This document shows positions 540 through 54,213 of a DNA stretch of 64,000 nt, one piece after another. Source of the stretch: Cantharellus purpuraceus (lineage: Eukaryota; Basidiomycota; Agaricomycetes; Cantharellales; Hydnaceae); assembly GCA_025174535.1 (NCBI GenBank), contig JALBUN010000024.1, forward strand, positions 124,001-188,000, in the 5' to 3' direction. Each line of letters begins with the position of its first letter. Position 1 is the stretch's first letter. Below the pieces are notes generated by a model. That model made no database searches and was not told the DNA's origin. It saw nothing but the letters and a program-made list of their open reading frames with translations. The position numbers and the translations under genes are program-made.

Positions 540-736
540 GCTTAGGGGTCCAGATATTCCAAAAAGAGGGGAATGCACTTAGAGGCTAGAGGAAGTAGGT
601 GGATGAATCCAACTGTCCAACCAGTGACACTCTGAAGCAGGTAACAGCGATGTGTGAAGTAGTCTAGCAACTGCTTCACACAAGTTCAAGATCCTAATGC
701 TCTGCAAAGGCAGTACACACTAGTAACTTTAACAAA
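540..736 (-). repeat. Copia-type LTR fragment (left part of the target of transposon copy 1)
   Basis: This is the reverse complement of about 14975-15165. The same LTR resumes at 8158, so the 7.4-kb multigene transposon sits inside it. The last three bases (AAA, 734-736) are repeated at 8158-8160, as expected for a 3-bp target duplication. No coding sequence is seen. Confidence 0.7.
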
Positions 737-1167
737 GACGCTTATTCAGAAATACAACAAATACGTATGTACAACCTATTTTCCTCAAATTTTATACAAT
801 ACACTTCAATTCAAACTTATTTTCATATTTCAACATGATTCTCAAATTTTACACAATATACTAGATTAAAACATATTTTGATATTTTGGCATAATTCTCA
901 AAAATAATTGTTTTTTCCCCATTTAGTGGTGGCAACTCCCTTGAGGAAACATCCAAATATCATTGATTCTTTCTTATACAATACTTGTAACATAATTTGA
1001 ACTATCTTTAATCCCCACCTGGTATTTGTATATCTAAATACCCTATATAATACCAATTATATTCATATATACATTCCTATTATATCCATGTAAATAATTA
1101 TGTTCATCTCAACCAAATATCTTATCTTTTAAAGTTTATTAAAATATAGAATATATGTTTATATTTA
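737..1167 (+). repeat. Terminal direct repeat (MITE-like) A, 3' truncated
   Basis: It starts GACGCTTATTCAGAAATAC and follows units B (7592), C (44267) and D (51733) almost base for base up to about 1167. It then jumps directly into the cargo sequence (AAAAATCATCACC). The roughly 135 bases that end the other units, including the right inverted end, and the first cargo bases are missing. The short shared string TTTAAA at the break suggests a small deletion. Confidence 0.85.
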
Positions 1168-1228
1168 AACAAAAATCATCACCTTATATCATCAACAAGC
1201 TTCTTTCTCCATAGATTTAGACATGCCA

Positions 1229-1726
1229 TTATGAATTCTTATCTTCATTGGTATGTCTGGACACTGTCCAACACAGCAAAGCCAATAGTATACCAATACT
1301 AGTTATGTAGATCATGTGCACTGTACGGCCAAGATATAGTTTCTGCCTATTTATATCTGGGCCTGGCTGTCTAACAAACGCCTGATTCACATGTGTGGTT
1401 ATAATGTGTGCATATCCAGAGGTTGGATCAGAACCACTTACAAATCTGTTGGTTTTATTCAGAAAACCTGCAAATTCTGCTACAAAAATAGGATCACTTT
1501 CATTATAGCCTATTTTATCAGGTTGTAGACCAAGAAATACATATTTGATATGAGGATACTTTGAAAGCTGGAACACTTCACCTTCAGCATATGAACGGTC
1601 CAGATACTGCCCAAAGGGGTACCAGTCACACGTTGTACAATTAGCTAGCCGGTGTGGATTGCTGTGAAAAGGCTTTTGGTAAAACTGTTGATTGAGACGC
1701 TGTTTCAGTAATGGATCAGTCTCCAT
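1229..1726 (-). CDS. Cargo ORF A: putative tail-anchored protein, 165 aa
   Basis: Function not recognised. The protein opens with METDPLLKQR, has a CTTCDW Cys pair near residue 30, a mixed central part, and one hydrophobic segment near residues 133-153 (IYITSIGILLALLCW) followed by a short charged tail. That is the layout of a tail-anchored membrane protein. An identical copy is at 44911-45408, and a diverged 159-residue copy at 42298-42777. It lies downstream of the transposase on the same strand, about 55 bases beyond its stop. Conservation of length and frame across all three copies argues that it is a real gene of the element. I cannot name a family. Confidence 0.7.
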   Translation of the reverse strand: METDPLLKQRLNQQFYQKPFHSNPHRLANCTTCDWYPFGQYLDRSYAEGEVFQLSKYPHIKYVFLGLQPDKIGYNESDPIFVAEFAGFLNKTNRFVSGSDPTSGYAHIITTHVNQAFVRQPGPDINRQKLYLGRTVHMIYITSIGILLALLCWTVSRHTNEDKNS

Positions 1727-1781
1727 AGATACCTATAAGTATAAAACATACAAATATTCAATTTTATTCTGGGAAAAAAAT

Positions 1782-3257
1782 TTACAGTTGAATGTAGCAT
1801 AGGTATACAATAATATTATTACTATTGTCTTTCCAATACTCTTTAATACATTCTGTAGATTTAAAGCTTGATGTTGCTTCCCAAGTTTTCTCTGCATAAC
1901 ATTTCCATTTAACTAAATATTCTACGTACTTTCCTTTTTCTTTGCCTTATTATTTGTTCTACTTCATTTTCAGTCTCATAATGCATCTCCACATCATACT
2001 CACATCTTTCTAATAGTCGTTGTTGAGATTGAGTCATCTTGTCAACATCTTCTGCTCTTTCCAGTAATGATCTGGGTGGCTCAATATCTGGGTCCTCTTC
2101 CTCAGGGTAATCAAAATATTGTTCACACCATTTTTCATGATAAGGGGATGGTTTGATCTTACGTAGTTCTACAAATTTCTTAATATTCCATAATAGACAT
2201 GCTACCTTTAATTCCAGATTAAAGACAGCAGGATTTGTAGTTCTAATAGATCTCTTATTATCAAATTTTTCAAACAATCTTGCAAACCCTCCAAAGAATG
2301 CTTCTACTGTTGAACGAAAGGCACCAAACTTCTTATTAAAAATCTTTTCTTCAGGTTTAAGTTCAACATTTTTGGCTTCCGAAAAGGATAAAAGAAGTTC
2401 TTAGGCTTTAATATACTTGCCTTTACTACTTCTGGAATAGCAGATGGATAAGCTCCATCAAAGCCTATCTGATCATTCTTATCTATTTTATTCCATACAG
2501 CCATCTCTACAAACATTTTTGCATCAGGATTTAGTTTACATGCCAATGAAGGTGAGGTGAATAGAACCATTTGATTAATGTCAATGCATACTTGAGTACG
2601 AAATCCTGCCTTTTTAAATTTATATGAGTACCCCTCTTCAGATGCCGATCCAATCAAAATTCCTCTTGTATCATGACCATCAAGAAGTAATGTCACTGAT
2701 TCCATTTTTGGAGGATTCTTTATAAGAGCTGATAATATCCTTATTATTATATTTGAGAACATTGTACGCAGTGAATCAGTAACTTGTTTATCTAGATCAA
2801 AGTTAAGATGATGCAGACGACCATAAAATTCCTTATGAACATCATAAAAGCTACTTGATGGCATGAAATTTCCTATTTCTTCATAAGTAGGACCTTTGAG
2901 TAGATGATATAGTACTAACAAGCCTTTTTCTATCTCTCTATAAGGTGTAGAATGTTCTTCAACTGAAAACAATACCACAAGAAAGAAAAATACTGGTATT
3001 GGTCCAAGCTTGTTATATACTACTTTTTTTACATCATCCATATCATTCATATCTTTTAGTTTTGTTCTATGATATTTTTTGTGTTCTAAGACAGGCCACT
3101 TTGTGTATAGAAAATTCCAATGATTGTCCATCAACTTATTATATGCTCTGTCCCTTTGATCATTCCACATTTTAAGTTGCTGAAGCTCTTTTTCTTCTTT
3201 CTCTTTTTGCTCTTTCTCTTTTTGCTCCTTTGTGCGTTTTTGCTGGTCTGAGGGCAT
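1782..3257 (-). pseudogene. PIF/Harbinger-like DDE transposase with C-terminal chromodomain, frameshifted (copy 1)
   Basis: Reading from 3257: a charged Lys/Glu-rich N-terminus, a helical region with FFFLVVLF, then a DDE core with TLLLDGHDTRG (first Asp), GFDGAYPSA (second Asp) and, after a frameshift near 2370, FRSTVEAFFGGF (Glu) at 2277-2320. This Asp/Asp/Glu layout with DGAY and R-x3-E fits the DDE_Tnp_4 (HARBI1/IS5) group. A chromodomain-like tail (EYLVKWKCYAEKTWEATSSF, about 1840-1915) follows after a second frame change near 1915. The intact frame of this tail is best seen in copy 2 at 42868-43086. The gene is divergent from the plus-strand 216-aa ORF. Copy 3 shares the frameshift near 2370, so the damage predates the last transposition, which must have used transposase supplied in trans. 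Confidence 0.8.
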
Positions 3258-3353
3258 TTTGACTAAGATACTCTTATATTACAGTAAAACAAAAATATGT
3301 TCATTTTTTTGATAATTGAATTTTAAATTAAATAATATTTATTCTATGAAGCT
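3258..3353. promoter_or_regulatory. Divergent (bidirectional) promoter region
   Basis: A 96-bp AT-rich spacer separates the start of the minus-strand transposase (ATG at 3257) from the plus-strand 216-aa ORF (ATG at 3354). It is kept in copy 3 (46939-47033) and copy 2 (52349-52444). TATA-like strings are present toward both genes, but I cannot fix a start site. Confidence 0.45.
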
Positions 3354-4004
3354 ATGTTGTCTGTCTCTAAGCAAGTTGTTCGTAAAATATCTACTGTCTT
3401 TGTTAAAAAAGAACCAGAGGATGATGAAAATCCTTTGTATATAGACTCTGACACCATCTACATAAAATTCAGATTAAGAAATCCCCCAAAGGACTTCTTT
3501 CCAGCTGGATCGGTTTCTCAGGAAAGAGATAAAACACCAGAAGCACTGTACAATAAGATGATTGAAAAGGGCAATGAAATAAGTAATTCAACCTGGATTC
3601 AACAAAATCATTGTATGTCAAGTCTGCAAACCATGCAACAGGATAATCTGCCTAGTTGTAATATTTCTATTGCTAGAGAAACTGGCAAGAAGTGTGATAT
3701 TTCTATTGCTGGGGAAACTTGTAAGAACTGTGATGTGTATAACAATTTGGTTACATCAATGGTTGTTGCATTGAAACAACAGCAGAGAGTTTTCAAGAAA
3801 AGTAAAATCACAATCTATGGTATGATCATAACTAAGGATGGTAGGTTAAAATTATATGAAACCACCAATAACAATCAGGGTGTTTCAATTGTTGTATATC
3901 CTTCCTCTGGATACAGCATAGAAGCTCAGTTTGAAGAGTGTTCTAATGCTATTGACATTATATTCCAAAGTATAAGAAATCAGATGTTCAAAGAATCCTC
4001 ATAA
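3354..4004 (+). CDS. Cargo ORF B: conserved 216-aa protein of unknown function
   Basis: Not recognised. It begins MLSVSKQVVRKIS, followed by an acidic patch (KKEPEDDENP, residues about 19-28) and a proline-containing segment (RNPPKDFFPAG). Near residues 97-127 a short motif is repeated (NISIARETGKKC then DISIAGETCKNC), giving paired Cys residues. The C-terminal half is beta-rich by eye (VSIVVYPSSGYSIEAQF). It is the only cargo gene on the plus strand, and it is open in all three copies (also 47034-47684 and 52445-53095) with only a few substitutions. It is therefore the best-preserved gene of the element. An accessory DNA-binding or transposition factor is possible, but that is a guess. Confidence 0.75.
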   Translation: MLSVSKQVVRKISTVFVKKEPEDDENPLYIDSDTIYIKFRLRNPPKDFFPAGSVSQERDKTPEALYNKMIEKGNEISNSTWIQQNHCMSSLQTMQQDNLPSCNISIARETGKKCDISIAGETCKNCDVYNNLVTSMVVALKQQQRVFKKSKITIYGMIITKDGRLKLYETTNNNQGVSIVVYPSSGYSIEAQFEECSNAIDIIFQSIRNQMFKESS

Positions 4005-4022
4005 GGAGTTGATTTAAAAGTC

Positions 4023-4247
4023 CTAGTTTCTACACTCACAACATTTTTCATCTATTTTCACTTGGATAATTTCAAGATTTGAACTTTTGTTCACACAACA
4101 ATAAGTACCATTAGTATCATGATGAGTATTTTTTGAATGTTCAGAGCTCTTAGGACATTTAATATCCTTACAATCTGTAACTACAGATGTAGTAGTTATA
4201 TGATTGCACTTCCAAGTAATTTGAATTTTTTCACTATCACCACACAT
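4023..4247 (-). CDS. Cargo ORF C: small Cys-rich protein, 74 aa
   Basis: Starts MCGDSEKIQITWKCNH and ends with KIDEKCCECRN. Nine Cys residues in 74, many in pairs, suggest a zinc- or disulfide-stabilised minidomain. It lies tail-to-tail with the 216-aa ORF, 18 bases apart. In copy 3 (about 47703-47926) the frame is broken by single-base losses in T runs. In copy 2 (54013-54162) a solo LTR replaces its C-terminus. I do not recognise the family. Confidence 0.5.
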   Translation of the reverse strand: MCGDSEKIQITWKCNHITTTSVVTDCKDIKCPKSSEHSKNTHHDTNGTYCCVNKSSNLEIIQVKIDEKCCECRN

Positions 4248-4298
4248 GCCTTCATTTGAGTGAATAAAAATATTGCATATTCACTTATCTGATTTATC

Positions 4299-4478
4299 TT
4301 ATACTTGTTGTAGTGCACGTAGTGGTAGCTGAATCTCATTGTCATCATAAGTAACAGTTATTAGCAAAGTGTCATCTGACAAAGTGCCAGTTACTAATGT
4401 AACAATACCTGTCACTGTCATTTGTGTTCTTGCATTGATAAATGATACCTTATCACCAATCTCGGGTATATTCAACAT
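4299..4478 (-). CDS. Cargo ORF D: 59-aa beta-rich protein
   Basis: Short ORF found by reading the minus strand. It begins MLNIPEIGDKVSFINARTQ and ends LPLRALQQV. The pattern GDKVSF, then alternating polar/hydrophobic stretches (MTVTGIVTLVTGTL, LLITVTYDD), suggests a small SH3/OB-like beta barrel; this is by eye only. The frame is the same length in copy 3 (47977-48156) and copy 2 (54214-54393), with Arg-to-His and few other changes. That conservation is the main evidence that it is coding. Confidence 0.55.
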   Translation of the reverse strand: MLNIPEIGDKVSFINARTQMTVTGIVTLVTGTLSDDTLLITVTYDDNEIQLPLRALQQV

Positions 4479-4516
4479 GGTGTCTCTGGTTATTATATAT
4501 TAATTTTCAAAACTCA

Positions 4517-5007
4517 TTATTTCTCATCTAATTTCCTATCAAGTATATCTACAAACTTCTTAAATGCTTCAAAACACTGTAGAACATTCTTTCTACTATT
4601 AATATGTTTCATACCTGTTACTGTTACAGGAAAACAACACCTTACATTTGTTATCACTTCTGAAAACAACCCTTCTGTGATAGCATGATCAAGCTCTCTT
4701 GTAACAGTTACTAGGTAAAACTGGGGGACTTTTCTCGATGTTTGAATGCAAGGTATTGTCATTTCCTCTAAAGCACTTTTTCCCTTATTCTTCCTTATCT
4801 AAGTATGTAAAAATTTTCTTGAAGACTCCTTTAAACATTTCACATCATCTTTTTGTAATCAAAACTGAGGATCTCATCATCAGTATCTAAAGTAATATCT
4901 CTAAAATCTGTCTCAAAAAACTGTTTAGTCCATTGTGTGTCAACCATTATACCATAATCCCAAAGATCATGAGAACTCCAATCATTGCACTTCTTATCTT
5001 TACCCAT
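4517..5007 (-). pseudogene. Cargo ORF E, broken copy (internal deletion)
   Basis: Both ends match the intact 255-residue ORF at 54432-55199: N-terminus MGKDKKCNDW at 5007, and the C-terminal 81 residues open at 4517-4762. About 230 bases in the middle (roughly residues 70-145) are missing, and the frame is also shifted near 4845 in a T run. Copy 3 (48195-48685) has the same deletion, so it happened before the two copies separated. Confidence 0.7.
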
Positions 5008-5499
5008 GATGTCAATAAAGAAGGATATATAAAATTTATTTACTAGATATGTGCATAGTTCTGAAGAGCAGAATGTCCATATTTTTATCTAATATTTATA
5101 AATTGAATTATATATATTTTCTAAAGTTGTCAATAGCCAGATGCATGCACTCGTTCTGAATACTACAACAAAGTCCCATACAGAATTCCCTGTCCTTTCA
5201 TCTATCATTCTTCTACCAGTTCCTTGTTTCCTATCTTGCCAGTCTTTCATTCCAAATTCTTTGCTGCATAGCTAAATAGGTGTACCAGCCGATTGGATAT
5301 TATCATATCATGGTAATGACGTCGGATGGAAGGTCACCTTGTCAGGAGCAGTTTGATCACATTATCAAAGGACAGCCTTTTGGCTGTGAGGGTTGATAAT
5401 GATGCACTTACTGAGCAGACAGTAGGTGAGACTTTGCAGCGGCATGGTGTACCAGATAATTGAATCGTTGTCCTTGAGCAGCCTGATGATGTCACTCGG

Positions 5500-6062
5500 T
5501 GTCGGTTCGCTTATGGAATAGATCCTATAAGCCTGCACGCAATGGTCCTAGCAAGCAGACGGTGTGTAACGCAGTTGTTCAGCACTCCAAAGATCAATCA
5601 GGGCGAGGGGTACGTAACAGGGAAGTGGGATAGTGCTCTGTGGTTGGATGAGGATGGGAGCAAAAGGTCGGTCCCGATGGCTGATCGTGCTCTGTGACTG
5701 GATGACAATGCGGAGCCCGGTTGGGAGGTACACGAAAGCTGGTTTCAGGAGAAGCAACCTCTCGGTGGCGGAGGGAAATCTGATCGTTGAACCAAGGTGT
5801 TTTACCTCAGTGTAGAGATGATGGATTGTGATGTAGAGTGTAGACTTAGAGCTTGGACTTTGACTTTAGAGTGCCGGCTGAAAACTTGTTTTTTGATTCC
5901 AAAGGCGAAAACTAGCGCCCTTTTATATACAAATTCCCAGGGCACAACGACACAATATGAGGAGCAAATGATGCAAGAAATGCTGATCAAGCCAGCTGAC
6001 GAAGCGTGTGAAGTTGAGCTACTAAAGGGGAAATCATGGAGAAATGAAACGACAGATAGGGA
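5500..6062 (-). repeat. LTR of family 'LTR3' inside transposon copy 1
   Basis: Begins TGTCGGTTCGCTTATGGAAT and matches 12361-12930, 31901-32144 (inverted), 49178-49741 and 63035-63178. Read on the minus strand it ends with AACCGACA. The right limit is uncertain, because similarity to the 12361 copy stops after GACAGATAGGG. Copy 3 has it at the same place, so it was carried along when the transposon moved. The preceding stretch 5050-5499 is noncoding cargo sequence. Confidence 0.6.
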
Positions 6063-6134
6063 CATCATTAGACTGCTCATGGACAGCCATTCACTCCAAG
6101 GTGACCTTGTATCCTACGTCTTTGGAGGCTTACA

Positions 6135-7217
6135 TTACTGGGTTCTCCCTCTACATCTTTTTCTTGAACTAGGAATTTGAGATTGATCAGAGTTTGAATC
6201 AGATTGATCAGAGTCTGAATCAGATTGATCAGAGTCTGAATCAGATTGATCAGAGTCTGAATCAGATCGTTCCTTAGACCTTTTTTCTTGATGCCTTGAA
6301 CCTTGAGTCATTCCTTGCTTCCATGTTTGAAAATTAATCCTATTACCATCTACGTCATATGATGACATTTCATTCTTCCTAGTATATATTGTAGATAGTT
6401 TTCTAGGCTCACCATTTATGAATAATTCCATTCTATTTAGTCTACAAGACTGATCTGAGTCTATAAGTATATAATCTACACCTCTTTTCACTATCTTAAA
6501 TGTCACCTTTCTGGTACCATTTTCCTGTAACCTTGTTACCTCCTGTTCTTGTTTTCCAGTCCAGTGATTCATATCAAATTTCCAGTCAACAATCTCAGAT
6601 ATTATTGCTTTATATTTATCACCCTGTTTCTGAAGTTTATTAATGTCTGTTCCAAGTTCCACTACAGTATCATCTGTTTCTACAATCCACTCATGCACTT
6701 CAGATTTCCATTCCACAATGTCTGATATTGTTGCAATACATCTATTAACCTGTTTCTGAAGTTTATGAATATCTGTTCTATGGTCCAATATAAGATTCTC
6801 TGCATTATGTGTATTGACCTGTTGATGAATATCTGTTCCATGGTCTGATATTGTGGCAACACACCTATTAACCTGTCTCTGAAGTTTATGAATATCTGTT
6901 CCAAATCCTGATACAATATCATTCATTTCACTCATCCATTCATCTAAATTCTCTTTCCTGTCTGTCAAAGTAGTTATAATTGTATTTTTTTCCTCAACCT
7001 GTTTCTTAAGCACCTGAATTTCCTGACTCTGGGAATTAACCTGTTGTTCAAGTATAGTTATCTGCCTATCCTTTTCACTCATCCAAGACTTGACATTTAT
7101 AAGATCAGATATTAATTCATCTTTTACTTCCATTTGACTTGCCATAGCTTTTATCAGTGCATCATTGTCACTTATCCAGCCTTTGATTGCTTTTATATCT
7201 TCAAAGATTTGTGACAT
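6135..7217 (-). CDS. Cargo ORF F: coiled-coil protein with SDSDSDQ tail, 360 aa
   Basis: Start chosen at ATG 7217 (MSQIFEDIKAIKGW). Residues about 1-230 are heptad-like and contain several imperfect copies of a motif such as TDIHKLQRQVNRCVATIS, typical of a long coiled coil or fibrous oligomer. A compact region with FKIVKRGVDYILIDSDQSC follows (about 250-290). A basic segment (RHQEKRSKER) then leads into four 7-residue units SDSDSDQ and a basic end SSRKRCRGRTQ. It is the rightmost cargo gene, before the right terminal repeat. Copy 3 carries 16 units but is frameshifted. Function unknown; a structural or DNA-bridging role is speculation. Confidence 0.65.
   Translation of the reverse strand: MSQIFEDIKAIKGWISDNDALIKAMASQMEVKDELISDLINVKSWMSEKDRQITILEQQVNSQSQEIQVLKKQVEEKNTIITTLTDRKENLDEWMSEMNDIVSGFGTDIHKLQRQVNRCVATISDHGTDIHQQVNTHNAENLILDHRTDIHKLQKQVNRCIATISDIVEWKSEVHEWIVETDDTVVELGTDINKLQKQGDKYKAIISEIVDWKFDMNHWTGKQEQEVTRLQENGTRKVTFKIVKRGVDYILIDSDQSCRLNRMELFINGEPRKLSTIYTRKNEMSSYDVDGNRINFQTWKQGMTQGSRHQEKRSKERSDSDSDQSDSDSDQSDSDSDQSDSNSDQSQIPSSRKRCRGRTQ
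6181..6264 (-). repeat. 21-bp tandem repeat, 4 units
   Basis: Four units of GATTGATCAGAGTCTGAATCA encode SDSDSDQ on the minus strand (one unit reads SDSNSDQ). The homologous array in copy 3 has 16 units. Confidence 0.95.
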
Positions 7218-7591
7218 TTTCAAATCCCTCTCTGCTTATAAAACAGAAATGAAAAAACATAATAATCATTTTTTTCTGAACATTTGATATTTTGTATAGG
7301 CAGTAGATATATACATCTTGCTTTCTTAATAAAATGATTATTATGTTTTTATGTTATAAGCATTATGAAGATGCTCTCTTTTATGCTTCAATGCAAGATA
7401 GAGTTTGATAGAAGAGTTAATTTCCACCACTTTGGATGGAAGATCTGATGGTATTGCACCCTAAAGTACGAGGGATAGTCATACAGTCTTATGTTAGAAC
7501 AAGATTATCTACCACTATGCCCTAACTAAGTTACTTTGTTTTAAAAATAGCTTCACTGCATTAAAGGTGTTTGTTTCCAAGACTTTCCTAA

Positions 7592-8157
7592 GACGCTTAT
7601 TCAGAAATACAACAAATACGTATGTACAACCTATTTTCCTCAAATTTTATACAATACACTTCAATTCAAACTTATTTTCATATTTCAACATGATTCTCAA
7701 ATTTTACACAATATACTAGATTAAAACATATTGTGATATTTTGGCATAATTCTCAAAAATAATTCTTTTTTTCCTGATTTAGTGGTGGCAACTCTCTTGA
7801 GGGAACATCCAAATATCATTGATTCTTTCTTATACAATACTTGTAACATAATTTGAACTATCTTTAATCCCCACCTGGTATTTGTATATCTAAATACCCT
7901 ATATAATACCAATTATATTCATATATACATTCCTATTATATCCATGTAAATAATTATGTTCATCTCAACCAAATGTCTTATCTTTTAAAGTTTATTAAAA
8001 TATAGAATATATGTTTATATTTATGAAAATTTCACACATCCGAAATCTTTTAAGATATCCAAATTGTAACTCCCTGGCTTTATGTATCATTGAAATCCTG
8101 ATGTATATCTCCTATACATCAGAATATTGTATACTGACATGATTCCGAACAAGCGTC
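7592..8157 (+). repeat. Terminal direct repeat (MITE-like) B, complete
   Basis: A 566-bp AT-rich unit from GACGCTTATTCAGAAATAC to GAACAAGCGTC. The ends match as inverted repeats for 14 bases with two mismatches. A subterminal hairpin (GATGTATA...TATACATC) precedes the right end. There is no meaningful ORF. The sequence 7218-7591 before it is noncoding cargo. TCCTAA on its left is also seen left of unit D and of unit E (minus strand). Confidence 0.85.
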
Positions 8158-8562
8158 AAAGAGAACTAATGGCAGGACTATTGACAGACAATCTCACCCT
8201 GTAGATTCGTAGTCACGTGAGGCAGATACTACACTCACACCCAAAGCAGGACAATCACTACTTCAAGTGCAATTGAATACAGTTACACAACTGTAAGCGA
8301 CCCTTGAACTGGACAATCAACAGTTACTGAGATATAGAGGATGACACTGTATGTCACTCTAGTCACACTGATGTGCAAATGATGGGGTAGAAATGGTTAT
8401 TATTTTCAGAGGCAGAATGGCCTCCTTTTATATTGTATTTACAGGAGCTGACTAATACTACTGGAAACTTCTACCTATTAATAGATGGAAACTACTGGAA
8501 GCTAGTGGAATATGTGAGAAGGGGGTGGAAGTTTCCTAGCCAATGAGCTGCTTGATTTGCTC
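8158..8562 (-). repeat. Copia-type LTR, right part
   Basis: The reverse complement matches about 14565-14965 over some 380 bases, including the strings CCTCTATCTCAGTAACTGTT and TCACGTGACTACGAATCTACA. It continues the LTR fragment at 540-736, from which it is separated by the inserted transposon. Confidence 0.7.
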
Positions 8563-41268: not shown

Positions 41269-42169
41269 GACACTTGTTCAGAAATACATCAAATATGTAT
41301 ATAATGTATATACAACCCATTTCCTCAAATTTTATATAATATGCTTATATTAAAACATATTTTGATATTTTGACATGATTCCCAAAAATAATTCTTTTTT
41401 TTTCATTTACCGGTGGCAACTGCTTGTCGCGTAGAACTGCTACTGCTATACCTACAATACACTTCCTCGTCCACATCGTCTCGAGGATCTGTAGGCATAC
41501 TTCACCTTTGCTGTATCGGAGTCATTCATTGTGCAAAACATATAAACTATCCTTGACGGTTTACGCACGTCACTGCGTACTGCGGCACAGCTCTCAGCAG
41601 CAGCAAACTTTGACCTTTCAAGGTCGGCTGCAAGAGGCAGCCGAAAGAAAAAAAGATGGAAACAACGTATACCGATTCCCCGAGCATTTTCTCTTTCGAC
41701 AAGTAGATATAGGTACTATCGAGGCTAGAGACTGCCGGAGGTGCTTCAAGGGAATATTCTACTCCTGCTACACTTAATTTCTTTCACTCATTATTTCTTG
41801 TACTATACTGGTCAAATAATCTAATGTACCTTGAATCCTCACCTGGTATTTGTATATCTAAATATTCTATATTATACCAATAATATTAATATATATTACT
41901 GTTATATTCATATAAATAATTATGTTCATCCATAACAAACATCTTATCTTTTAAAGTTTATTAAAATATGAAATATATATTTATATTTATAAAAATTTAA
42001 GATATCCAAAAAAAAAAAACTCAGATATCTGAAATCTTTAAAGATATCCAGATTGTAACTCCCTATTTTTATGATCATTATTAAAATTCTGATGTATATC
42101 TCATATATTCTGATGTACATCTTGTATACATCAGAATATTGTATAACAGCATCCTTCCGAACAAGCATC
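41269..42169 (+). repeat. MITE-like unit F, diverged, with internal insertion
   Basis: Ends GACACTTGTTCAG and GAACAAGCATC. Flanked by TAG on both sides (41266-41268, 42170-42172). The unit resembles A-E but is older, and about 390 bases (41425-41815) with no counterpart replace its middle. It is the left terminal repeat of transposon copy 2; the cargo starts at TAGGGAGATCATTTTAAAAAC as in copy 3. Confidence 0.75.
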
Positions 42170-42297
42170 TAGGGAGATCATTTTAAAAACAAAAATCATC
42201 ACCTTATACCATTGACAAGCTTCTTTCTGCATAGATTTAGACATGCCATTACAAATTCTTATCTTCATTGGTATGTCTGTAGTGATCCCAAGCATGA

Positions 42298-42777
42298 TCA
42301 CCCATGTCTGGACACTGTCCAACACAACAAAGCAAATAGTATACTAAGACAAGTTATGTAGACCATGTGCACTGTACAGCCAAGATATAGTTTTTGCCTA
42401 TTTATATCTGGACCTGGCTGTCTAACAAATGCCTGATTTACATGTGTGGTTATAATGTGTGCATATCCAGAGGTTGGATCAGAACCACTTACAAATCTGT
42501 TGCTTTTATTCAGAAACCCTGCAAATTCTGCTACAAAAATAGGATCACTTTCATTATAGCCTATTTTATTGGGTTGTAGACCAAGGAAGACATATTTGAT
42601 ATGAGGATACTTTGAAAGCTGGAACACTTCACCTTCAGCATATGAATGGTCCAGATATTGTCCAAAGGGGTACCAGTCACATGTTGTACAATTAGCTAGC
42701 TGGTGTGGATTGCTATGAAAAGGCTTTTGGTAAAACTGTTGATTGAAATGCTGTTTCAGCAATGGATCAGTCTCCAT
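42298..42777 (-). CDS. Cargo ORF A (copy 2), tail-anchored protein, 159 aa
   Basis: About 93% identical by eye to the 165-aa protein at 1229-1726, with the same Cys pair, hydrophobic segment (HMVYITCLSILFALLCW) and short tail, here ending SRHG. Substitutions are scattered while the frame is kept, consistent with past selection. Confidence 0.7.
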   Translation of the reverse strand: METDPLLKQHFNQQFYQKPFHSNPHQLANCTTCDWYPFGQYLDHSYAEGEVFQLSKYPHIKYVFLGLQPNKIGYNESDPIFVAEFAGFLNKSNRFVSGSDPTSGYAHIITTHVNQAFVRQPGPDINRQKLYLGCTVHMVYITCLSILFALLCWTVSRHG

Positions 42778-42867
42778 AAATACCTATAAGTATAAAAAAT
42801 ATAATAATTCAATTTTATTCTAGGAATAATTTTTTTTCTATAAAATGTAAGGTATATAATAATATTA

Positions 42868-44266
42868 TTATGGTTTGCCTTTCCAATACTCCTCAGCACA
42901 TTCTGTAGATTTAAAGCTTGACCAAGATTCCCAAGTTGGATCTTGGTAACCTTTCCAAGTAACTAAGTATTCTAGTCTCCTTCCTATTCCTCGATGTTGT
43001 GTTATTTCCTCTACCTCAAATACCTCTTCATTCATCTCCACATCAGATTCATCCTCACATCTTTCTAATAGTCGTCGTTGATACATAGATATCTTCTCAT
43101 TATCATCTTTTTCTTCCTGTGGTGTTTTGAGTTTTGGTGGCTCAATGTCTAGGTCACCTGGCTGAGGATAATCAAACTGAATTTCACACCATTTTATGAT
43201 AAGGTTGTGTTGGAATTTTACGTAGTTCTACAAACTTCTTAATATTCCATAATAAACATGCTACCTTTAGTTCCAGGTTAAAGACAGCAGCATTTGTAGT
43301 TCTAATAGGCCTCTTATTATTAAATTTTTCAAATAATTGTCCAAATCCTCCAAAAAATGCTTCTATTATTGAGCAAAAGCTACCAAACCTCTTATTCTCT
43401 TTTTTGTCTTCAGGTGAAAGTTCAACACGTTGTTTCTTCCAAGTGGGATGAGTGAAATTCTCAGCATCTAAGTTACTTCCACTTATTACTGTTAAAATAG
43501 TACTATTATAGGCTCCATCAAGACCCATCTGATCAGTTGCATCCATTATATCCCATATAGCCATGTCTTCAAGCATTAGCCCATCAGGATTATCTTTACA
43601 TGGCATGGAATCTGATGTGCATAGAACCATTTGATTAACATCAATGCATACTTGAGTACAAAATGCTGCCTTTCCATGTTTAAATGAATAAAACTCTTTA
43701 GATGCTGATCCAATTACAATTCCTCTTGTATCATGACCATCAAGAAGTAATGTCACTGTTTTTAGTTCTGGAGGATTATTTATAAGAGATGATAATATCC
43801 TTATTCTTGTGTTTGAGAACATTCAAAGCAGTAAATCATTAACTTGTTTATCTAGATCAATGTTGAAATCATGTTCACGACCATAAAAGCCCTTATGAAC
43901 ATCATTAAAACTACTTGGTGGCATGAAGTCTCCCATTTCAGCATAAGTAACACCTTTGACTATGTGGTATAGGCATAATAAGCCTAGTTCTATATTTCTA
44001 CAAGGTCCTTTATAGTCTTTGAATGGAAACAATACCACAAGAAAGAAAAATACTGGTATTGGTCCAAGCTTTTCAAGTAGTACTTTTCTGACATGATCTA
44101 TTTTTTTTACATCTTTTAATGCTGACCTATGATGGTTTTGTTTTATGACAGGCCAACTTATATAAAGAAACCCCCAATGCTTGTTCATCAACTTATAATA
44201 TGCTCTGTCTCTTTGATTCTTCCACATGTTAAGCTGCTGAAGCTCTTTTTCTTCTTTCTCTTTTTG
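42868..44266 (-). pseudogene. DDE transposase with chromodomain (copy 2), interrupted by copy 3
   Basis: It carries TLLLDGHDTRGIVIGSAS (first Asp, about 43715-43770), QMGLDGAYNS (second Asp), SFCSIIEAFFGGFG (Glu, about 43345-43390) and, in the C-terminal frame 42868-43086, a chromodomain: VEEITQHRG, RRLEYLVTWKGYQDPTWESW, SSFKSTECAEEYWKG. One stop (near 43823) and a frameshift near 43190 disable it. Its first 16 codons (MPSDQQKRTKEQKEKEQ region) lie on the other side of the insertion at 52298-52348. Best copy for seeing the chromodomain fusion. Confidence 0.82.
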
Positions 44267-44831
44267 GACGCTTATTCAGAAATACAACAAATACGTATGT
44301 ACAACCTATTTTCCTCAAATTTTATACAATACACTTCAATTCAAACTTATTTTCATATTTCAACATGATTCTCAAATTTTACACAATATACTAGATTAAA
44401 ACATATTTTGATATTTTGGCATAATTCTCAAAAATAATTGTTTTTTCCCCATTTAGTGGTGGCAACTCCCTTGAGGGAACATCCAAATATCATTGATTCT
44501 TTCTTATACAATACTTGTAACATAATTTGAACTATCTTTAATCCCCACCTGGTATTTGTATATCTAAATACCCTATATAATACCAATTATATTCATATAT
44601 ACATTCCTATTATATCCATGTAAATAATTATGTTCATCTCAACCAAATATCTTATCTTTTAAAGTTTATTAAAATATAGAATATATGTTTATATTTATGA
44701 AAATTTCACACATCCGAAATCTTTTAAGATATCCAAATTGTAACTCCCTGGCTTTATGTATCATTGAAATCCTGATGTATACCTCCTATACATCAGAATA
44801 TTGTATACTGACATGATTCCGAACAAGCGTC
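44267..44831 (+). repeat. Terminal direct repeat (MITE-like) C
   Basis: 565 bp, GACGCTTATTC to GAACAAGCGTC. Left outside flank TTG; right inside flank TAGGGGGGTCATTTTAAAAAC, the cargo start. Confidence 0.93.
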
Positions 44832-44910
44832 TAGGGGGGTCATTTTAAAAACAAAAATCATCACCTTATATCATCAACAAGCTTCTTTCTCCATAGATTT
44901 AGACATGCCA

Positions 44911-45408
44911 TTATGAATTCTTATCTTCATTGGTATGTCTGGACACTGTCCAACACAGCAAAGCCAATAGTATACCAATACTAGTTATGTAGATCATGTG
45001 CACTGTACGGCCAAGATATAGTTTCTGCCTATTTATATCTGGGCCTGGCTGTCTAACAAACGCCTGATTCACATGTGTGGTTATAATGTGTGCATATCCA
45101 GAGGTTGGATCAGAACCACTTACAAATCTGTTGGTTTTATTCAGAAAACCTGCAAATTCTGCTACAAAAATAGGATCACTTTCATTATAGCCTATTTTAT
45201 CAGGTTGTAGACCAAGAAATACATATTTGATATGAGGATACTTTGAAAGCTGGAACACTTCACCTTCAGCATATGAACGGTCCAGATACTGCCCAAAGGG
45301 GTACCAGTCACACGTTGTACAATTAGCTAGCCGGTGTGGATTGCTGTGAAAAGGCTTTTGGTAAAACTGTTGATTGAGACGCTGTTTCAGTAATGGATCA
45401 GTCTCCAT
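44911..45408 (-). CDS. Cargo ORF A (copy 3), 165 aa
   Basis: Identical in protein sequence to 1229-1726: N-terminal METDPLLKQR, Cys pair CTTC, one C-terminal hydrophobic segment. Downstream of the transposase as in copy 1. Confidence 0.7.
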   Translation of the reverse strand: METDPLLKQRLNQQFYQKPFHSNPHRLANCTTCDWYPFGQYLDRSYAEGEVFQLSKYPHIKYVFLGLQPDKIGYNESDPIFVAEFAGFLNKTNRFVSGSDPTSGYAHIITTHVNQAFVRQPGPDINRQKLYLGRTVHMIYITSIGILLALLCWTVSRHTNEDKNS

Positions 45409-45463
45409 AGATACCTATAAGTATAAAACATACAAATATTCAATTTTATTCTGGGAAAAAAAT

Positions 45464-46938
45464 TTACAGTTGAATGTAGCATAGGTATACAATAATATTA
45501 TTACTATTGTCTTTCCAATACTCTTTAATACATTCTGTAGATTTAAAGCTTGATGTTGCTTCCCAAGTTTTCTCTGCATAACATTTCCATTTAACTAAAT
45601 ATTCTACGTACTTTCCTTTTTCTTTGCCTTATTATTTGTTCTACTTCATTTTCAGTCTCATAATGCATCTCCACATCATACTCACATCTTTCTAATAGTC
45701 GTTGTTGAGATTGAGTCATCTTGTCAACATCTTCTGCTCTTTCCAGTAATGATCTGGGTGGCTCAATATCTGGGTCCTCTTCCTCAGGGTAATCAAAATA
45801 TTGTTCACACCATTTTTCATGATAAGGGGATGGTTTGATCTTACGTAGTTCTACAAATTTCTTAATATTCCATAATAGACATGCTACCTTTAATTCCAGA
45901 TTAAAGACAGCAGGATTTGTAGTTCTAATAGATCTCTTATTATCAAATTTTTCAAACAATCTTGCAAACCCTCCAAAGAATGCTTCTACTGTTGAACGAA
46001 AGGCACCAAACTTCTTATTAAAAATCTTTTCTTCAGGTTTAAGTTCAACATTTTTGGCTTCCGAAAAGGATAAAAGAAGTTCTTAGGCTTTAATATACTT
46101 GCCTTTACTACTTCTGGAATAGCAGATGGATAAGCTCCATCAAAGCCTATCTGATCATTCTTATCTATTTTATTCCATACAGCCATCTCTACAAACATTT
46201 TTGCATCAGGATTTAGTTTACATGCCAATGAAGGTGAGGTGAATAGAACCATTTGATTAATGTCAATGCATACTTGAGTACGAAATCCTGCCTTTTAAAT
46301 TTATATGAGTACCCCTCTTCAGATGCTGATCCAATCAAAATTCCTCTTGTATCATGACCATCAAGAAGTAATGTCACTGATTCCATTTTTGGAGGATTCT
46401 TTATAAGAGCTGATAATATCCTTATTATTATATTTGAGAACATTGTACGCAGTGAATCAGTAACTTGTTTATCTAGATCAAAGTTAAGATGATGCAGACG
46501 ACCATAAAATTCCTTATGAACATCATAAAAGCTACTTGATGGCATGAAATTTCCTATTTCTTCATAAGTAGGACCTTTGAGTAGATGATATAGTACTAAC
46601 AAGCCTTTTTCTATCTCTCTATAAGGTGTAGAATGTTCTTCAACTGAAAACAATACCACAAGAAAGAAAAATACTGGTATTGGTCCAAGCTTGTTATATA
46701 CTACTTTTTTTACATCATCCATATCATTCATATCTTTTAGTTTTGTTCTATGATATTTTTTGTGTTCTAAGACAGGCCACTTTGTGTATAGAAAATTCCA
46801 ATGATTGTCCATCAACTTATTATATGCTCTGTCCCTTTGATCATTCCACATTTTAAGTTGCTGAAGCTCTTTTTCTTCTTTCTCTTTTTGCTCTTTCTCT
46901 TTTTGCTCCTTTGTGCGTTTTTGCTGGTCTGAGGGCAT
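45464..46938 (-). pseudogene. DDE transposase with chromodomain (copy 3), frameshifted
   Basis: Same domains as copy 1. It shares the frameshift before FRSTVEAFFGGF and adds another near 46294 (T run one base shorter), giving open pieces 46213-46938, 45986-46252 and 45591-45959. It is therefore more damaged than copy 1, although the flanking sequence is nearly identical. Confidence 0.82.
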
Positions 46939-47033
46939 TTTGACTAAGATACTCTTATATTACAGTAAAACAAAAATATGTTCATTTTTTGATAATTGAA
47001 TTTTAAATTAAATAATATTTATTCTATGAAGCT

Positions 47034-47684
47034 ATGTTGTCTGTCTCTAAGCAAGTTGTTAGTAAAATATCTACTGTCTTTGTTAAAAAAGAACCAGAGG
47101 ATGATGAAAATCCTTTGTATATAGACTCTGACACCATCTACATAAAATTCAGATTAAGAAATCCCCCAAAGGACTTCTTTCCAGCTGGATTGGTTTCTCA
47201 GGAAAGAGATAAAACACCAGAAGCACTGTACAATAAGATGATTGAAAAGGGCAATGAAATAAGTAATTCAACCTGGATTCAACAAAATCATTGTATGTCA
47301 AGTCTGCAAACCATGCAACAGGATAATCTGCCTAGTTGTAATATTTCTATTGCTAGAGAAACTGGCAAGAAGTGTGATATTTCTATTGCTGGGGAAACTT
47401 GTAAGAACTGTGATGTGTATAACAATTTGGTTACATCAATGGTTGTTGCATTGAAACAACAGCAGAGAGTTTTCAAGAAAAGTAAAATCACAATCTATGG
47501 TATGATCATAACTAAGGATGGTAGGTTAAAATTATATGAAACCACCAATAACAATCAGGGTGTTTCAATTGTTGTATATCCTTCCTCTGGATACAGCATA
47601 GAAGCTCAGTTTGAAGAGTGTTCTAATGCTATTGACATTATATTCCAAAGTATAAGAAATCAGATGTTCAAAGAATCCTCATAA
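47034..47684 (+). CDS. Cargo ORF B (copy 3), 216 aa
   Basis: Two substitutions by eye against 3354-4004 (Arg to Ser in VVSKIS, Ser to Leu in PAGLVS), frame intact. Divergent from the transposase across a 95-bp spacer. Confidence 0.75.
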   Translation: MLSVSKQVVSKISTVFVKKEPEDDENPLYIDSDTIYIKFRLRNPPKDFFPAGLVSQERDKTPEALYNKMIEKGNEISNSTWIQQNHCMSSLQTMQQDNLPSCNISIARETGKKCDISIAGETCKNCDVYNNLVTSMVVALKQQQRVFKKSKITIYGMIITKDGRLKLYETTNNNQGVSIVVYPSSGYSIEAQFEECSNAIDIIFQSIRNQMFKESS

Positions 47685-47702
47685 GGAGTTGATTTAAAAG
47701 TC

Positions 47703-47926
47703 CTAGTTTCTACACTCACAACATTTTTCATTTATTTTCACTTGGATAATTTCAAGATTTGAACTTTTGTTCACACAACAATAAGTACCATTAGTATCAT
47801 GATGAGTATTTTTGAATGTTCAGAGCTCTTAGGACATTTAATATCCTTACAATCTGTAACTACAGATGTAGTAGTTATATGATTGCACTTCCAAGTAATT
47901 TGAATTTTTCACTATCACCACACATG
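47703..47926 (-). pseudogene. Cargo ORF C (copy 3), frameshifted
   Basis: Homologous to the Cys-rich 74-mer at 4023-4247, but one base is missing in each of two T runs (near 47812 and 47907), which breaks the frame. Confidence 0.6.
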
Positions 47927-47976
47927 CCTTCATTTGAGTGAATAAAAATATTGCATATTCACTTATCTGATTTATC

Positions 47977-48156
47977 TTATACTTGTTGTAGTGCATGTAG
48001 TGGTAGCTGAATCTCATTGTCATCATAAGTAACAGTTATTAGCAAAGTGTCATCTGACAAAGTGCCAGTTACTAATGTAACAATACCTGTCACTGTCATT
48101 TGTGTTCTTGCATTGATAAATGATACCTTATCACCAATCTCGGGTATATTCAACAT
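47977..48156 (-). CDS. Cargo ORF D (copy 3), 59 aa
   Basis: Same length and start (MLNIPEIGDK) as 4299-4478, with one Arg-to-His change near the C-terminus. Its persistence in all copies supports coding. Confidence 0.5.
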   Translation of the reverse strand: MLNIPEIGDKVSFINARTQMTVTGIVTLVTGTLSDDTLLITVTYDDNEIQLPLHALQQV

Positions 48157-48194
48157 GGTGTCTCTGGTTATTATATATTAATTTTCAAAACTCA

Positions 48195-48685
48195 TTATTT
48201 CTCATCTAATTTCCTATCAAGTATATCTACAAACTTCTTAAATGCTTCAAAACACTGTAGAACATTCTTTCTACTATTAATATGTTTCATACCTGTTACT
48301 GTTACAGGAAAACAACACCTTACATTTGTTATCACTTCTGAAAACAACCCTTCTGTGATAGCATGATCAAGCTCTCTTGTAACAGTTACTAGGTAAAACT
48401 GGGGGACTTTTCTCAATGTTTGAATGCAAGGTATTGTCATTTCCTCTAAAGCACTTTTTCCCTTATTCTTCCTTATCTAAGTATGTAAAAATTTTCTTGA
48501 AGACTCCTTTAAACATTTCACATCATCTTTTTGTAATCAAAACTGAGGATCTCATCATCAGTATCTAAAGTAATATCTCTAAAATCTGTCTCAAAAAACT
48601 GTTTAGTCCATTGTGTGTCAACCATTATACCATAATCCCAAAGATCATGAGAACTCCAATCATTGCACTTCTTATCTTTACCCAT
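48195..48685 (-). pseudogene. Cargo ORF E (copy 3), internal deletion
   Basis: Shares the central deletion and frame change of the copy 1 version (4517-5007); the C-terminal 81 residues are open. Start MGKDKKCNDW at 48685. Confidence 0.7.
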
Positions 48686-49177
48686 GATGTCAATAAAGAA
48701 GGATATATAAAATTTATTTACTAGATATGTGCATAGTTCTGAAGAGCAGAATGTCCATATTTTTATCTAATATTTATAAATTGAATTATATATATTTTCT
48801 AAAGTTGTCAATAGCCAGATGCATGCACTCGTTCTGAATACTACAACAAAGTCCCATACAGAATTCCCTGTCCTTTCATCTATCATTCTTCTACCAGTTC
48901 CTTGTTTCCTATCTTGCCAGTCTTTCATTCCAAATTCTTTGCTGCATAGCTAAATAGGTGTACCAGCCGATTGGATATTATCATATCATGGTAATGACGT
49001 CGGATGGAAGGTCACCTTGTCAGGAGCAGTTTGATCACATTATCAAAGGACAGCCTTTTGGCTGTGAGGGTTGATAATGATGCACTTACTGAGCAGACAG
49101 TAGGTGAGACTTTGCAGCGGCATGGTGTACCAGATAATTGAATCGTTGTCCTTGAGCAGCCCGATGATGTCACTCGG

Positions 49178-49741
49178 TGTCGGTTCGCTTATGGAATAGA
49201 TCCTATAAGCCTGCGCGCAATGGTCCTAGCAAGCAGACGGTGTGTAACGCAGTTGTTCAGCACTCCAAAGATCAATCAGGGCGAGGGGTACGTAACAGGG
49301 AAGTGGGATAGTGCTCTGTGGTTGGATGAGGATGGGAGCAAAAGGTCGGTCCCGATGGCTGATCGTGCTCTGTGACTGGATGACAATGCGGAGCCCGGTT
49401 GGGAGGTACGCGAAAGCTGGTTTCAGGAGAATCAACCTCTCGGTGGCGGAGGGAAATCTGATCATTGAACCAAGGTGTTTTACCTCAGTGTAGAGATGAT
49501 GGATTGTGATGTAGAGTGTAGACTTAGAGCTTGGACTTTGACTTTAGAGCGTTGGCTGAAAACTTGTTTTTTGATTCCAAAGGCGAAAACTAGCGCCCTT
49601 TTATATACAAATTCCCAGGGCACAACGACACAATATGAGGAGCAAATGATGCAAGAAATGCTGATCAAGCCAGCTGACGAAGCGTGTGAAGTTGAGCTAC
49701 TAAAGGGGAAATCATGGAGAAATGAAACGACAGATAGGGAC
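49178..49741 (-). repeat. LTR3 copy inside transposon copy 3
   Basis: Same position and sequence as 5500-6062, so it is an old insertion inherited by both copies. The preceding 48686-49177 is noncoding cargo sequence with no feature I recognise. Confidence 0.6.
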
Positions 49742-49812
49742 ATCATTAGACTGCTCATGGACAGCCATTCACTCCAAGGTGACCTTGTATCCTACGTCTT
49801 CGGAGGCTTACA

Positions 49813-51193
49813 TTACTGGGTTCTCCCTCTACATCTTTTTCTTGAACTAGGAATTTGAGATTGATCAGAGTCTGAATCAGATTGATCAGAGTCTGAATCA
49901 GATTGATCAGAGTCTGAATCAGATTGATCAGAGTCTGAATCAGATTGATCAGAGTCTGAATCAGATTGATCAGAGTCTGAATCAGATTGATCAGAGTCTG
50001 AATCAGATTGATCAGAGTCTGAATCAGATTGATCAGAGTCTGAATCAGATTGATCAGAGTCTGAATCAGATTGATCAGAGTCTGAATCAGATTGATCAGA
50101 GTCTGAATCAGATTGATCAGAGTCTGAATCAGATTGATCAGAGTCTGAATCAGATTGATCAGAGTCTGAATCAGATTGATCAGAGTCTGAATCAGATCGT
50201 TCCTTAGACCTTTTTTCTTGATGCCTTGAACTAGGAGTTTGAGATCGTTCATTAGACCTTTTTCTTGATGCCTTAAACCTTGAGTCATTCCTTGCTTCCA
50301 TGTTTGAAAATTAATCCTATTACCATCTACGTCATATGATGACATTTCATTCTTTCTAGTATATATTGTAGATAGTTTTCTAGGCTCACCATTTATGAAT
50401 AATTCCATTCTATTTAGTCTACAAGACTGATCTGAGTCTATAAGTATATAGTCTACACCTCTTTTCACTATCTTAAATGTCACCTTTCTGGTACCATTTT
50501 CCTGTAACCTTGTTACCTCCTGTTCTTGTTTTCCAGCCCAGTGATTCATATCAAATTTCCAGTCAACAATCTCAGATATTATTGCTTTATATTTATCACC
50601 CTGTTTCTGAAGTTTATTAATGTCTGTTCCAAGTTCCACTACAGTATCATCTGTTTCTACAATCCACTCATGCACTTCAGATTTCCATTCCACAATGTCT
50701 GATATTGTTGCAATACATCTATTAACCTGTTTCTGAAGTTTATGAATATCTGTTCTATAGTCCAATATAAGATTCTCTGCATTATGTGTATTGACCTGTT
50801 GATGAATATCTGTTCCATGGTCTGATATTGTGGCAACACACCTATTAACCTGTCTCTGAAGTTTATGAATATCTGTTCCAAATCCTGATACAATATCATT
50901 CATTTCACTCATCCATTCATCTAAATTCTCTTTCCTGTCTGTCAAAGTAGTTATAATTGTATTTTTTCCTCAACCTGTTTCTTAAGCACCTGAATTTCCT
51001 GACTCTGGGAATTAACCTGTTGTTCAAGCATAGTGATCTGCCTATCCTTTTCACTCATCCAAGACTTGACATTTATAAGATCAGATATTAATTCATCTTT
51101 TACTTCCATTTGACTTGCCATAGCTTTTATCAGTGCATCATTGTCACTTATCCAGCCTTTGATTGCTTTTATATCTTCAAAGATTTGTGGCAT
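49813..51193 (-). pseudogene. Cargo ORF F (copy 3), coiled-coil protein, two frameshifts
   Basis: Start MPQIFEDIKAIKGW at 51193. The frame is lost near 50950 (T run) and again near 50262, where one base is missing in the RKRSNERS region. The downstream heptad array then stays open both as SDSDSDQ (49813-50301) and, in the frame of the main body, as LINLIQT (49755-50945). Compared with copy 1 it also has an extra basic segment SNERSQTPSSRHQEKR, apparently a duplicated tail. Confidence 0.7.
49859..50194 (-). repeat. 21-bp tandem repeat, 16 units
   Basis: 336 bp of almost identical GATTGATCAGAGTCTGAATCA units, homologous to the 4-unit array at 6181-6264. High identity between units indicates recent expansion by slippage or unequal exchange. 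Confidence 0.95.
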
Positions 51194-51732
51194 TTTCAAA
51201 TCACTCTCTGCTTATAAAACAGAAATGAAAAAACATAATAATCATTTTTTCTGAACATTTGATATTTTGTATAGGCAGTAGATATATACATCTTGCTTTC
51301 TTAATAAAATGATTATTATGTTTTTATGTTATAAGCATTATGAAGATGCTCTCTTTTATGCTTCAATGCAAGATAGAGTTTGATAGAAGAGTTAATGATT
51401 GGTATATATCTCGGATAGGATCCCTCCATGATTTGTTTCTGAGGTAAGTTCCTTTATAAATATCAAGGTTCCAATCACTGACTTTATACAGATGTACTGA
51501 TGGCACACTTCTGGAACAGAAATTAACAGAGTTATATACTAGTATGGAGCAGGATCATTATTTTCCACCACTTTGGATGGAAGATCTGATGGTATTGCAC
51601 CCTAAAGTACGAGGGATAGTCATACAGTCTTATGTTAGAACAAGATTATCTACCACTATGCCCTAACTAAGTTACTTTGTTTTAAAAATAGCTTCACTGC
51701 ATTAAAGGTGTTTGTTTCCAAGACTTTCCTAA

Positions 51733-52297: not shown

Positions 52298-52348
52298 TTG
52301 CTCTTTCTCTTTTTGCTCCTTTGTGCGTTTTTGCTGGTCTGAGGGCAT
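52298..52348 (-). pseudogene. First codons of the copy 2 transposase
   Basis: ATG at 52348 and the Lys/Glu/Gln-rich start MPSDQQKRTKEQKEKEQ. This is the 5' piece of the gene interrupted by copy 3. TTG at 52298-52300 is the duplicated target. Confidence 0.85.
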
Positions 52349-52444
52349 TTTGACTAAGATACTCTTATATTACAATAAAACAAAAATATGTTCATTTTTT
52401 TGATAATTGAATTTTAAATTAAATAATATTTATTCTATGAAGCC

Positions 52445-53095: not shown

Positions 53096-53193
53096 GGAGT
53101 TGATTTAAAAGGCCTAGTTTCTACACTCACAACATTTCTCATCTATTTTCACTTGGATAATTTCAAGATTTGAACTTTTGTTCACACAATAAT

Positions 53194-54162: not shown

Positions 54163-54213
54163 GCCTTCATTTGAGTGAATAAAAATATTGTATATTCACT
54201 TATCTGATTTATC

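What the first reader, a model, noticed from the sequence alone, without database searches (positions are those of the whole stretch)
734..8160. A multigene DNA transposon that moves as MITE-cargo-MITE
Direct MITE-like repeats frame a 6.4-kb cargo. Only the outermost ends are flanked by a duplicated target (AAA). This is the architecture of a bacterial composite transposon, in a fungal nuclear genome, and the cargo includes a PIF/Harbinger-like transposase plus six ORFs of no recognised family. Ordinary PIF/Harbinger elements have two genes and no long direct terminal repeats. Seen: repeats, duplication, ORFs. Known: PIF/Harbinger makes 3-bp duplications. Inferred: the encoded transposase acts on these ends.
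Basis: partly seen in the sequence, partly recalled or inferred. Interest (0 to 1): 0.92.

Follow-up and report, generated by a model that had tools for sequence, protein, structure and literature searches.

The report
DNA transposon with paired MITE ends
A likely fungal genome holds more than fifty copies of a gene block bordered by 566-base repeats that also occur alone; in the thirty copies compared the two repeats of one copy are nearly the same while those of different copies differ much more, so both ends are likely copied from one template when this jumping element spreads.

Summary
A 566-bp unit with its own short inverted ends frames a gene block in direct orientation, with a 3-bp target duplication only at the outermost ends. 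It is a genome-wide family: 58 of 59 right ends of the block abut a unit; 31 of 37 composites with both ends read share an outer 3-bp duplication, shuffled mean 7.3; single units have one in 34 of 38. A second copy, 44267-52297, is absent from a near-identical duplicate of its locus, which shows the empty site. The block encodes a PIF/Harbinger-type (DDE_Tnp_4) transposase plus proteins of no recognised family.

The architecture is known from KolobokP of animals (2022). Here it comes with another transposase type, apparently in a Mucoromycota-like fungus. The surprise: the two units of a copy differ by 1.40 substitutions, against 10.00 when shuffled (30 copies); between copies units differ about 4.5 times more than the genes they frame and show no clear linkage to them. 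Cut-and-paste of a fixed unit alone does not explain this. Both ends likely come from one template: a one-unit circle, capture by resident single units, or strong gene conversion. My data do not separate these.

The parts
734..736 (.). target duplication AAA, left of copy A
737..1173 (+). left terminal unit of copy A, truncated (5' 434-437 bp of the 566-bp unit)
1174..7591 (+). internal gene block of copy A
1229..1726 (-). ORF165, predicted single C-terminal membrane segment (read by eye); no stop in 63 of 63 genome matches
1908..3257 (-). DDE_Tnp_4-type transposase gene, frameshifted in this copy (317-aa open part at 2304-3257)
3354..4004 (+). ORF216, no homologue found
4517..4762 (-). 81-aa tail of ORF256, whose middle is deleted in this copy
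5493..6070 (.). repeat of about 0.58 kb carried inside the block (18 of 20 copies), not an element gene
6135..7217 (-). coiled-coil/SD-repeat ORF with a 21-bp tandem repeat of variable copy number
7592..8157 (+). right terminal unit of copy A, complete, 566 bp
8158..8160 (.). target duplication AAA, right of copy A
44264..44266 (.). target duplication TTG, left of copy B
44267..44831 (+). left terminal unit of copy B, identical to the right one
44832..51732 (+). internal gene block of copy B (6901 bp)
51733..52297 (+). right terminal unit of copy B
52298..52300 (.). target duplication TTG, right of copy B
41269..44266 (+). left part of an older, about 82% identical sister element (terminal unit with an insert, then block) into which copy B is inserted
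52298..55624 (+). right part of the same older element, broken by an insert near 53194-54009; no right unit seen
63179..63744 (-). single unit flanked by TTA/TTA

Best explanation
Window 737-8157 is one 7.4-kb copy of a family of DNA transposons built as terminal unit, gene block, terminal unit in the same orientation, and the whole block likely moves through its own predicted DDE transposase acting on the outermost ends, with both terminal units likely renewed from a single template in the process. Shown: the architecture, the outer 3-bp duplications, one empty site, single units with their own duplications, tandem arrays that share units, and the near-identity of the two units of a copy together with their lack of linkage to the genes between them. 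Inferred: that this transposase cuts these ends; that single units move on their own with the transposase supplied in trans; and the template step. I think the template step most likely runs through an extrachromosomal form with one effective terminal unit (a circle of unit plus block, as in the translocatable units of IS26), or through repair of the freed element against a resident single unit, either of which leaves two copies of one unit at the ends. Ectopic recombination later makes the few mosaic copies and the copies with mismatched duplications.
For: Outer duplication shared in 31 of 37 composites, shuffled mean 7.3. Empty site of copy B in a duplicate locus, 99.3% identical over 2.2 kb to its left and 98.6% over 4.2 kb to its right. 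Single units: 34 of 38 full-length ones with a perfect 3-bp duplication, of 40 places fetched. Array of three units and two blocks with TTA at both outer ends. 58 of 59 right block ends abut a unit. All 9 DDE_Tnp_4 matches in this genome lie in these elements (checked). Own L-R difference 1.65 against 8.62 shuffled (20 copies) and 0.90 against 11.24 (10 further copies, chosen for matching duplications); no shuffle of 20,000 reached either. Units differ between copies by 1.59%, blocks by 0.35%, units within a copy by 0.29%. Linkage r2 0.81 between homologous sites of the two units, 0.07-0.11 between units and neighbouring block, 0.054 shuffled. Unit distance against block distance: Mantel r 0.11, p 0.25.
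Against: Four of 20 copies (L012, L018, L024, L028) carry clearly unlike units, and own R was the nearest R (ties allowed) in only 15 of 20, so identity at birth is not strict or is lost. The blocks recombine too (236 of 496 site pairs fail the four-gamete test), so plain gene conversion could do part of it. The empty site of copy B does not tell one step (whole element) from two (unit first, block later). Private changes do not separate the routes. The Pfam match is weak: 23 bits for L018, below the 24.8 cut-off, 24.9 for three genome copies. Foldseek finds only weak matches. No binding or cutting was tested.
Confidence: 0.6

Rival explanations
1. Fixed unit plus gene conversion: the composite is cut and pasted as a whole, and ordinary gene conversion between its two direct repeats, and from other copies, keeps them alike.
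For: Blocks recombine among copies; four of 20 copies are mosaics as partial conversion would leave.
Against: In ten further copies with intact duplications own L-R difference is 0-3 while every other pairing is 3 or more; conversion would have to bring in foreign haplotypes and then spread each over the whole 566 bp at the other end nearly every time, without carrying linked block sequence.
Confidence: 0.27
2. Landing pads only: single units insert by transposase, and the block reaches them afterwards by homologous recombination, as in model b1 of the KolobokP paper.
For: Paired units are as diverse as single ones (1.82% and 1.51%) and unlinked to the block; L012 looks like the reciprocal mosaic that one crossover would give.
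Against: A simple crossover predicts reciprocal mosaics as the rule; one of 20 fits that. The duplicate of the copy B locus has no single unit, so two events would be needed since the duplication.
Confidence: 0.2
3. Chance pairing: unrelated single MITEs happen to lie on both sides of other DNA.
For: Units are common: 315 exact right ends.
Against: Same block, same junctions and shared outer duplications in dozens of copies.
Confidence: 0.01

Closest known systems
KolobokP (Kojima and Bao 2022, PMC9587614; parts 1-4 of 6 of the text read)
   Same: Long terminal direct repeats, each with short inverted ends, around an internal region with a transposase gene; solo repeats and multimers sharing repeats, with outer target duplications.
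   Different: KolobokP belongs to the Kolobok superfamily, is reported from seven animal phyla and encodes a His-Me finger nuclease. Here the transposase is of the DDE_Tnp_4 type, Pfam finds no such nuclease, the block holds other genes, and the host is apparently a fungus. In the parts read I saw no comparison of left and right repeats within and between copies.
PIF/Harbinger transposons and Tourist-type MITEs (abstract starts in the listing: PMC2836001, PMC2213677)
   Same: DDE transposase, 3-bp duplications rich in TAA/TTA, short inverted ends, non-autonomous small partners.
   Different: Those listings describe two proteins (ORF1 and transposase) and no long direct terminal repeats; no Myb-type partner was found here by Pfam.
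IS26 translocatable units and bacterial composite transposons (as discussed in PMC9587614; details recalled)
   Same: Two direct copies of a mobile unit around a cargo; a one-unit circle can give two identical flanking units.
   Different: There the flanking IS carries the transposase gene; here the units are non-coding and the gene lies in the block.
LTR retrotransposons
   Same: Paired direct ends that match within a copy, solo ends, tandem copies.
   Different: No reverse transcriptase among the ORFs scanned; ends carry inverted repeats.
Ac/Ds macrotransposons of maize (recalled; PMC9910405 seen only in a listing)
   Same: Outer ends of two neighbouring elements can move the DNA between them.
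   Different: As I recall them, occasional rearrangements rather than an amplified family with a constant block.

Membership tests
KolobokP | unit-block-unit in direct orientation, units with own short inverted ends | tested here: met
KolobokP | solo units and multimers with outer duplications | tested here: met
KolobokP | Kolobok-superfamily transposase | tested here: not met
   Only DDE_Tnp_4 reaches E < 0.01 in Pfam; kin carry PF13359; the Kolobok C/DxxH signature itself was not checked
KolobokP | His-Me finger nuclease gene | tested here: not met
   No such Pfam match at E up to 1 in five ORFs; a diverged one could be missed
PIF/Harbinger | DDE_Tnp_4-type transposase with DDE triad | tested here: met
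   E 6.5e-5 but 23 bits, under the cut-off, for L018; three genome copies at 24.9 bits; D193/D196, D267, E319 invariant in 16 sequences
PIF/Harbinger | 3-bp target duplication, TWA preference | tested here: met
   31 of 37; 18 of the 31 are TTA or TAA
PIF/Harbinger | second, Myb/SANT-like protein | tested here: not met
   no such Pfam match at E up to 1
PIF/Harbinger | transposase acts on the element's ends | not testable with these tools
   needs an assay
LTR retrotransposon | reverse transcriptase | tested here: not met
   no match in the ORFs scanned
LTR retrotransposon | paired ends alike within a copy | tested here: met

The most novel reading that the evidence does not exclude
A DNA transposon that has converged on the life cycle of LTR retrotransposons: at every round both long ends are made from one template, through a one-unit circle or by repair against resident single units, so the gene block keeps changing its pair of ends and a pool of single MITEs serves as its supply of termini. 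It would be the second such lineage after KolobokP, with a different transposase type and outside animals.
Probability: 0.45. Interest if true: 0.9.

Novelty: new variant of a known kind. Interest (0 to 1): 0.76.

Why it matters
If the reading is right, composite-like DNA transposons arose at least twice, in unrelated transposase types, so the design is a workable way of life and not an accident of one lineage. The natural marks in this family (many unit haplotypes, one near-uniform block) turn the open question of how such elements renew their paired ends, which the KolobokP authors leave unknown, into something that can be counted, and offer a test bed for replicative or circle-based movement of a eukaryotic DDE transposon.

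Tried and rejected
Idea that the block is itself a transposon nested between two MITEs: its ends are weakly inverted (TAGGGAGGTC / GACTTTCCTAA), but 58 of 59 right block ends abut a unit, so a free block is at most rare; set aside. Viral origin of the block: transposase and ORF256 found no relative in viral contigs. ORF216 and ORF165: no homologue at E 0.001 among 113 and 5 candidates; ORF256 and the coiled-coil ORF were not searched there. Structure of ORF256: pLDDT 28, useless. Transposase model: pLDDT 84.8, but the best PDB match is Tn5 transposase at E 5.6e-3, TM 0.22, none at 0.001. Test by private changes (single units 0.47 each; shared by both units of a composite 0.53; left only 0.27, right only 0.17) did not separate the routes. 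Selection: dN/dS between families is 0.20 and 0.42 for ORF165, 0.27 for ORF256, 0.47 for part of ORF216, 0.82 and 0.83 for the transposase; against this, ORF216 gave 1.39 on only ten changes.

Literature: in the held open-access library; only PMC9587614 describes DNA transposons of this architecture among the papers listed. Subscription papers and Repbase reports were not searched.
Full report
What is there. The window is part of a 40.15-Mb assembly of 50 contigs. At 737-8157 a gene block is framed by direct copies of a 566-bp unit that begins GACGCTTATTCAGAA and ends TTCCGAACAAGCGTC. The left unit of this copy has lost its last ~130 bp; the right one is complete. AAA stands outside both ends, and nothing is duplicated inside. 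A second, complete copy B lies at 44267-52297 with TTG outside, and a single unit at 63179-63744 with TTA on both sides.

Genome-wide. An exact 29-bp left end occurs 123 times, an exact 16-bp right end 315 times. The left junction unit-block has 56 matches with up to two mismatches, of which one, on C1 at 3.82 Mb, looks unrelated. Of 59 right ends of the block, 58 are followed directly by a unit. I read 20 complete composites in full, 19 fetched plus copy B (a twentieth fetched stretch, L019, was not a composite), and the outer ends of 20 more pairs, 17 with both ends found. Of these 37, 31 share the outer 3-bp duplication; shuffling right against left gives 7.3 on average and 17 at most. The 31 are TTA 9, TAA 9, TAT 3, ATA, TTG and TGA 2 each, AAA, CTA, TTT and TCG 1 each. 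Of 40 single-unit places fetched, 38 are full length and 34 of these have a perfect duplication. On contig C45 three units and two blocks form one array with TTA at both outer ends; contig C44 (19,130 bp) holds three units, each preceded by a block end.

Empty site. Copy B sits inside an older sister element. Contig C35 holds a duplicate of that locus without copy B, 99.3% identical over 2.2 kb to the left and 98.6% over 4.2 kb to the right, and reads straight through the target; copy B adds TTG on both sides. This fixes the ends of the mobile block. It does not show whether the 8 kb came in one step. The sister family is about 82% identical (three places, two of which are the duplicates just named); its left unit keeps the same junction with the block, so unit and block have been together since before the families split. 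I saw no right unit in the sister copies fetched.

Genes. The transposase matches Pfam DDE_Tnp_4 (E 6.5e-5, 23 bits against a cut-off of 24.8; 24.9 bits for three genome copies). All nine DDE_Tnp_4 matches in the genome fall in these elements; since the family scores poorly even here, a diverged transposase elsewhere could be missed. Eighty homologues were found, the best 53% identical over 90%; the 12 that bear an organism name are Apophysomyces, Rhizomucor, Circinella, Mortierella, Actinomortierella and Thamnidium, hence my inference of a Mucoromycota-like fungus. D193/D196, D267 and E319 are invariant among 16 aligned sequences. The homologues often carry a chromodomain; here its reading frame is shifted in the 20 copies, and in frame in the sister family. 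Five of the 20 copies have an open transposase of 449-454 aa, and 12 full-length stop-free ones are listed genome-wide; ORF256 is whole and stop-free at 12 places, while ORF165 has no stop in 63 of 63 matches and ORF216 is open in 20 of 20 copies, 12 codons shorter in L027. So many copies probably move with proteins made by others. Youth of the copies may explain much of ORF165's integrity; its dN/dS of 0.20 and 0.42 against two sister copies points to selection.

The paired ends. In the first 20 copies the two units of a copy differ by 1.65 substitutions on average, against 8.62 when left and right are paired at random; none of 20,000 shuffles came as low. Ten further copies, chosen among those with matching duplications, gave 0.90 against 11.24, and each unit was closer to its own partner than to any other of the ten; all 30 gave 1.40 against 10.00. 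In the 20 copies units differ between copies by 1.59%, the block (4,982 compared columns, repeats left out) by 0.35%, and the two units of a copy by 0.29%. L013 and L023 differ at 8 of 4,982 block columns, but by 18 of about 566 at either end, with 0 differences between the two ends of each. Homologous sites of the two units are linked over about 7 kb (r2 0.81, 15 pairs), while units and neighbouring block are hardly linked (0.11, 22 pairs; 0.07, 61 pairs; shuffled 0.054). A Mantel test of unit against block distance gave r 0.11, p 0.25; that is absence of evidence for linkage, on 20 copies. Paired units are about as diverse as single ones (1.82% and 1.51%). One haplotype mark (G142) is in 12 of 38 single units and 0 of 20 composites (Fisher 0.005; 0.022 if copy A, which has it, is counted), which suggests that single units also spread on their own.

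How it likely works. A fixed unit moved by cut-and-paste would let left and right drift apart from the founding of the family; instead each pair coalesces about as recently as the blocks do, whereas units of different copies are older. Some step renews both ends from one template. A one-unit circle that inserts replicatively gives this directly; repair of the freed element against a resident single unit gives it if conversion covers the whole 566 bp; gene conversion within the element could also do it. I rank the first two together as most likely, and the tests proposed would tell them apart. Against strict renewal stand four mosaic copies of 20 (L012, L018, L024, L028), of which two also have mismatched duplications, and the recombination seen within blocks.

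What is known. [quoted passage not shown] Its authors propose transposition plus nuclease-induced unequal crossover, discuss circles and capture by solo repeats, and call the pathway unknown. By architecture this is the same kind; by transposase and the genes tested it is not a member. I found no other paper on such elements, which cover only the open-access library.

Noticed in passing
41000-56500: A large duplicated segment, present again on contig C35 without copy B.
   Followed up: yes
1905-2000 (copy A) and L018: A chromodomain-like tail follows the transposase frame but out of frame in the 20 copies; it is in frame in the sister family. A fixed loss or a frameshift in translation.
   Followed up: partly
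6180-6263 and 49858-50197: A 21-bp tandem repeat inside the coiled-coil ORF expands from about 4 copies to more than a dozen between copies.
   Followed up: no
L011 and L022: Two composites in opposite orientation share nearly the same flanks on both sides, so the same site of a repeat was hit twice or the element was inverted.
   Followed up: no
9374-9420 and 55643-56200: Similar sequence that I take for the end of a gypsy-type LTR stands beside copy A and at the broken right end of the sister element (identification by eye).
   Followed up: no
C31:135755-136057 and C4:1025006-1025278: Distant relatives of ORF256 (46% and 34% identity over parts) outside the elements.
   Followed up: no
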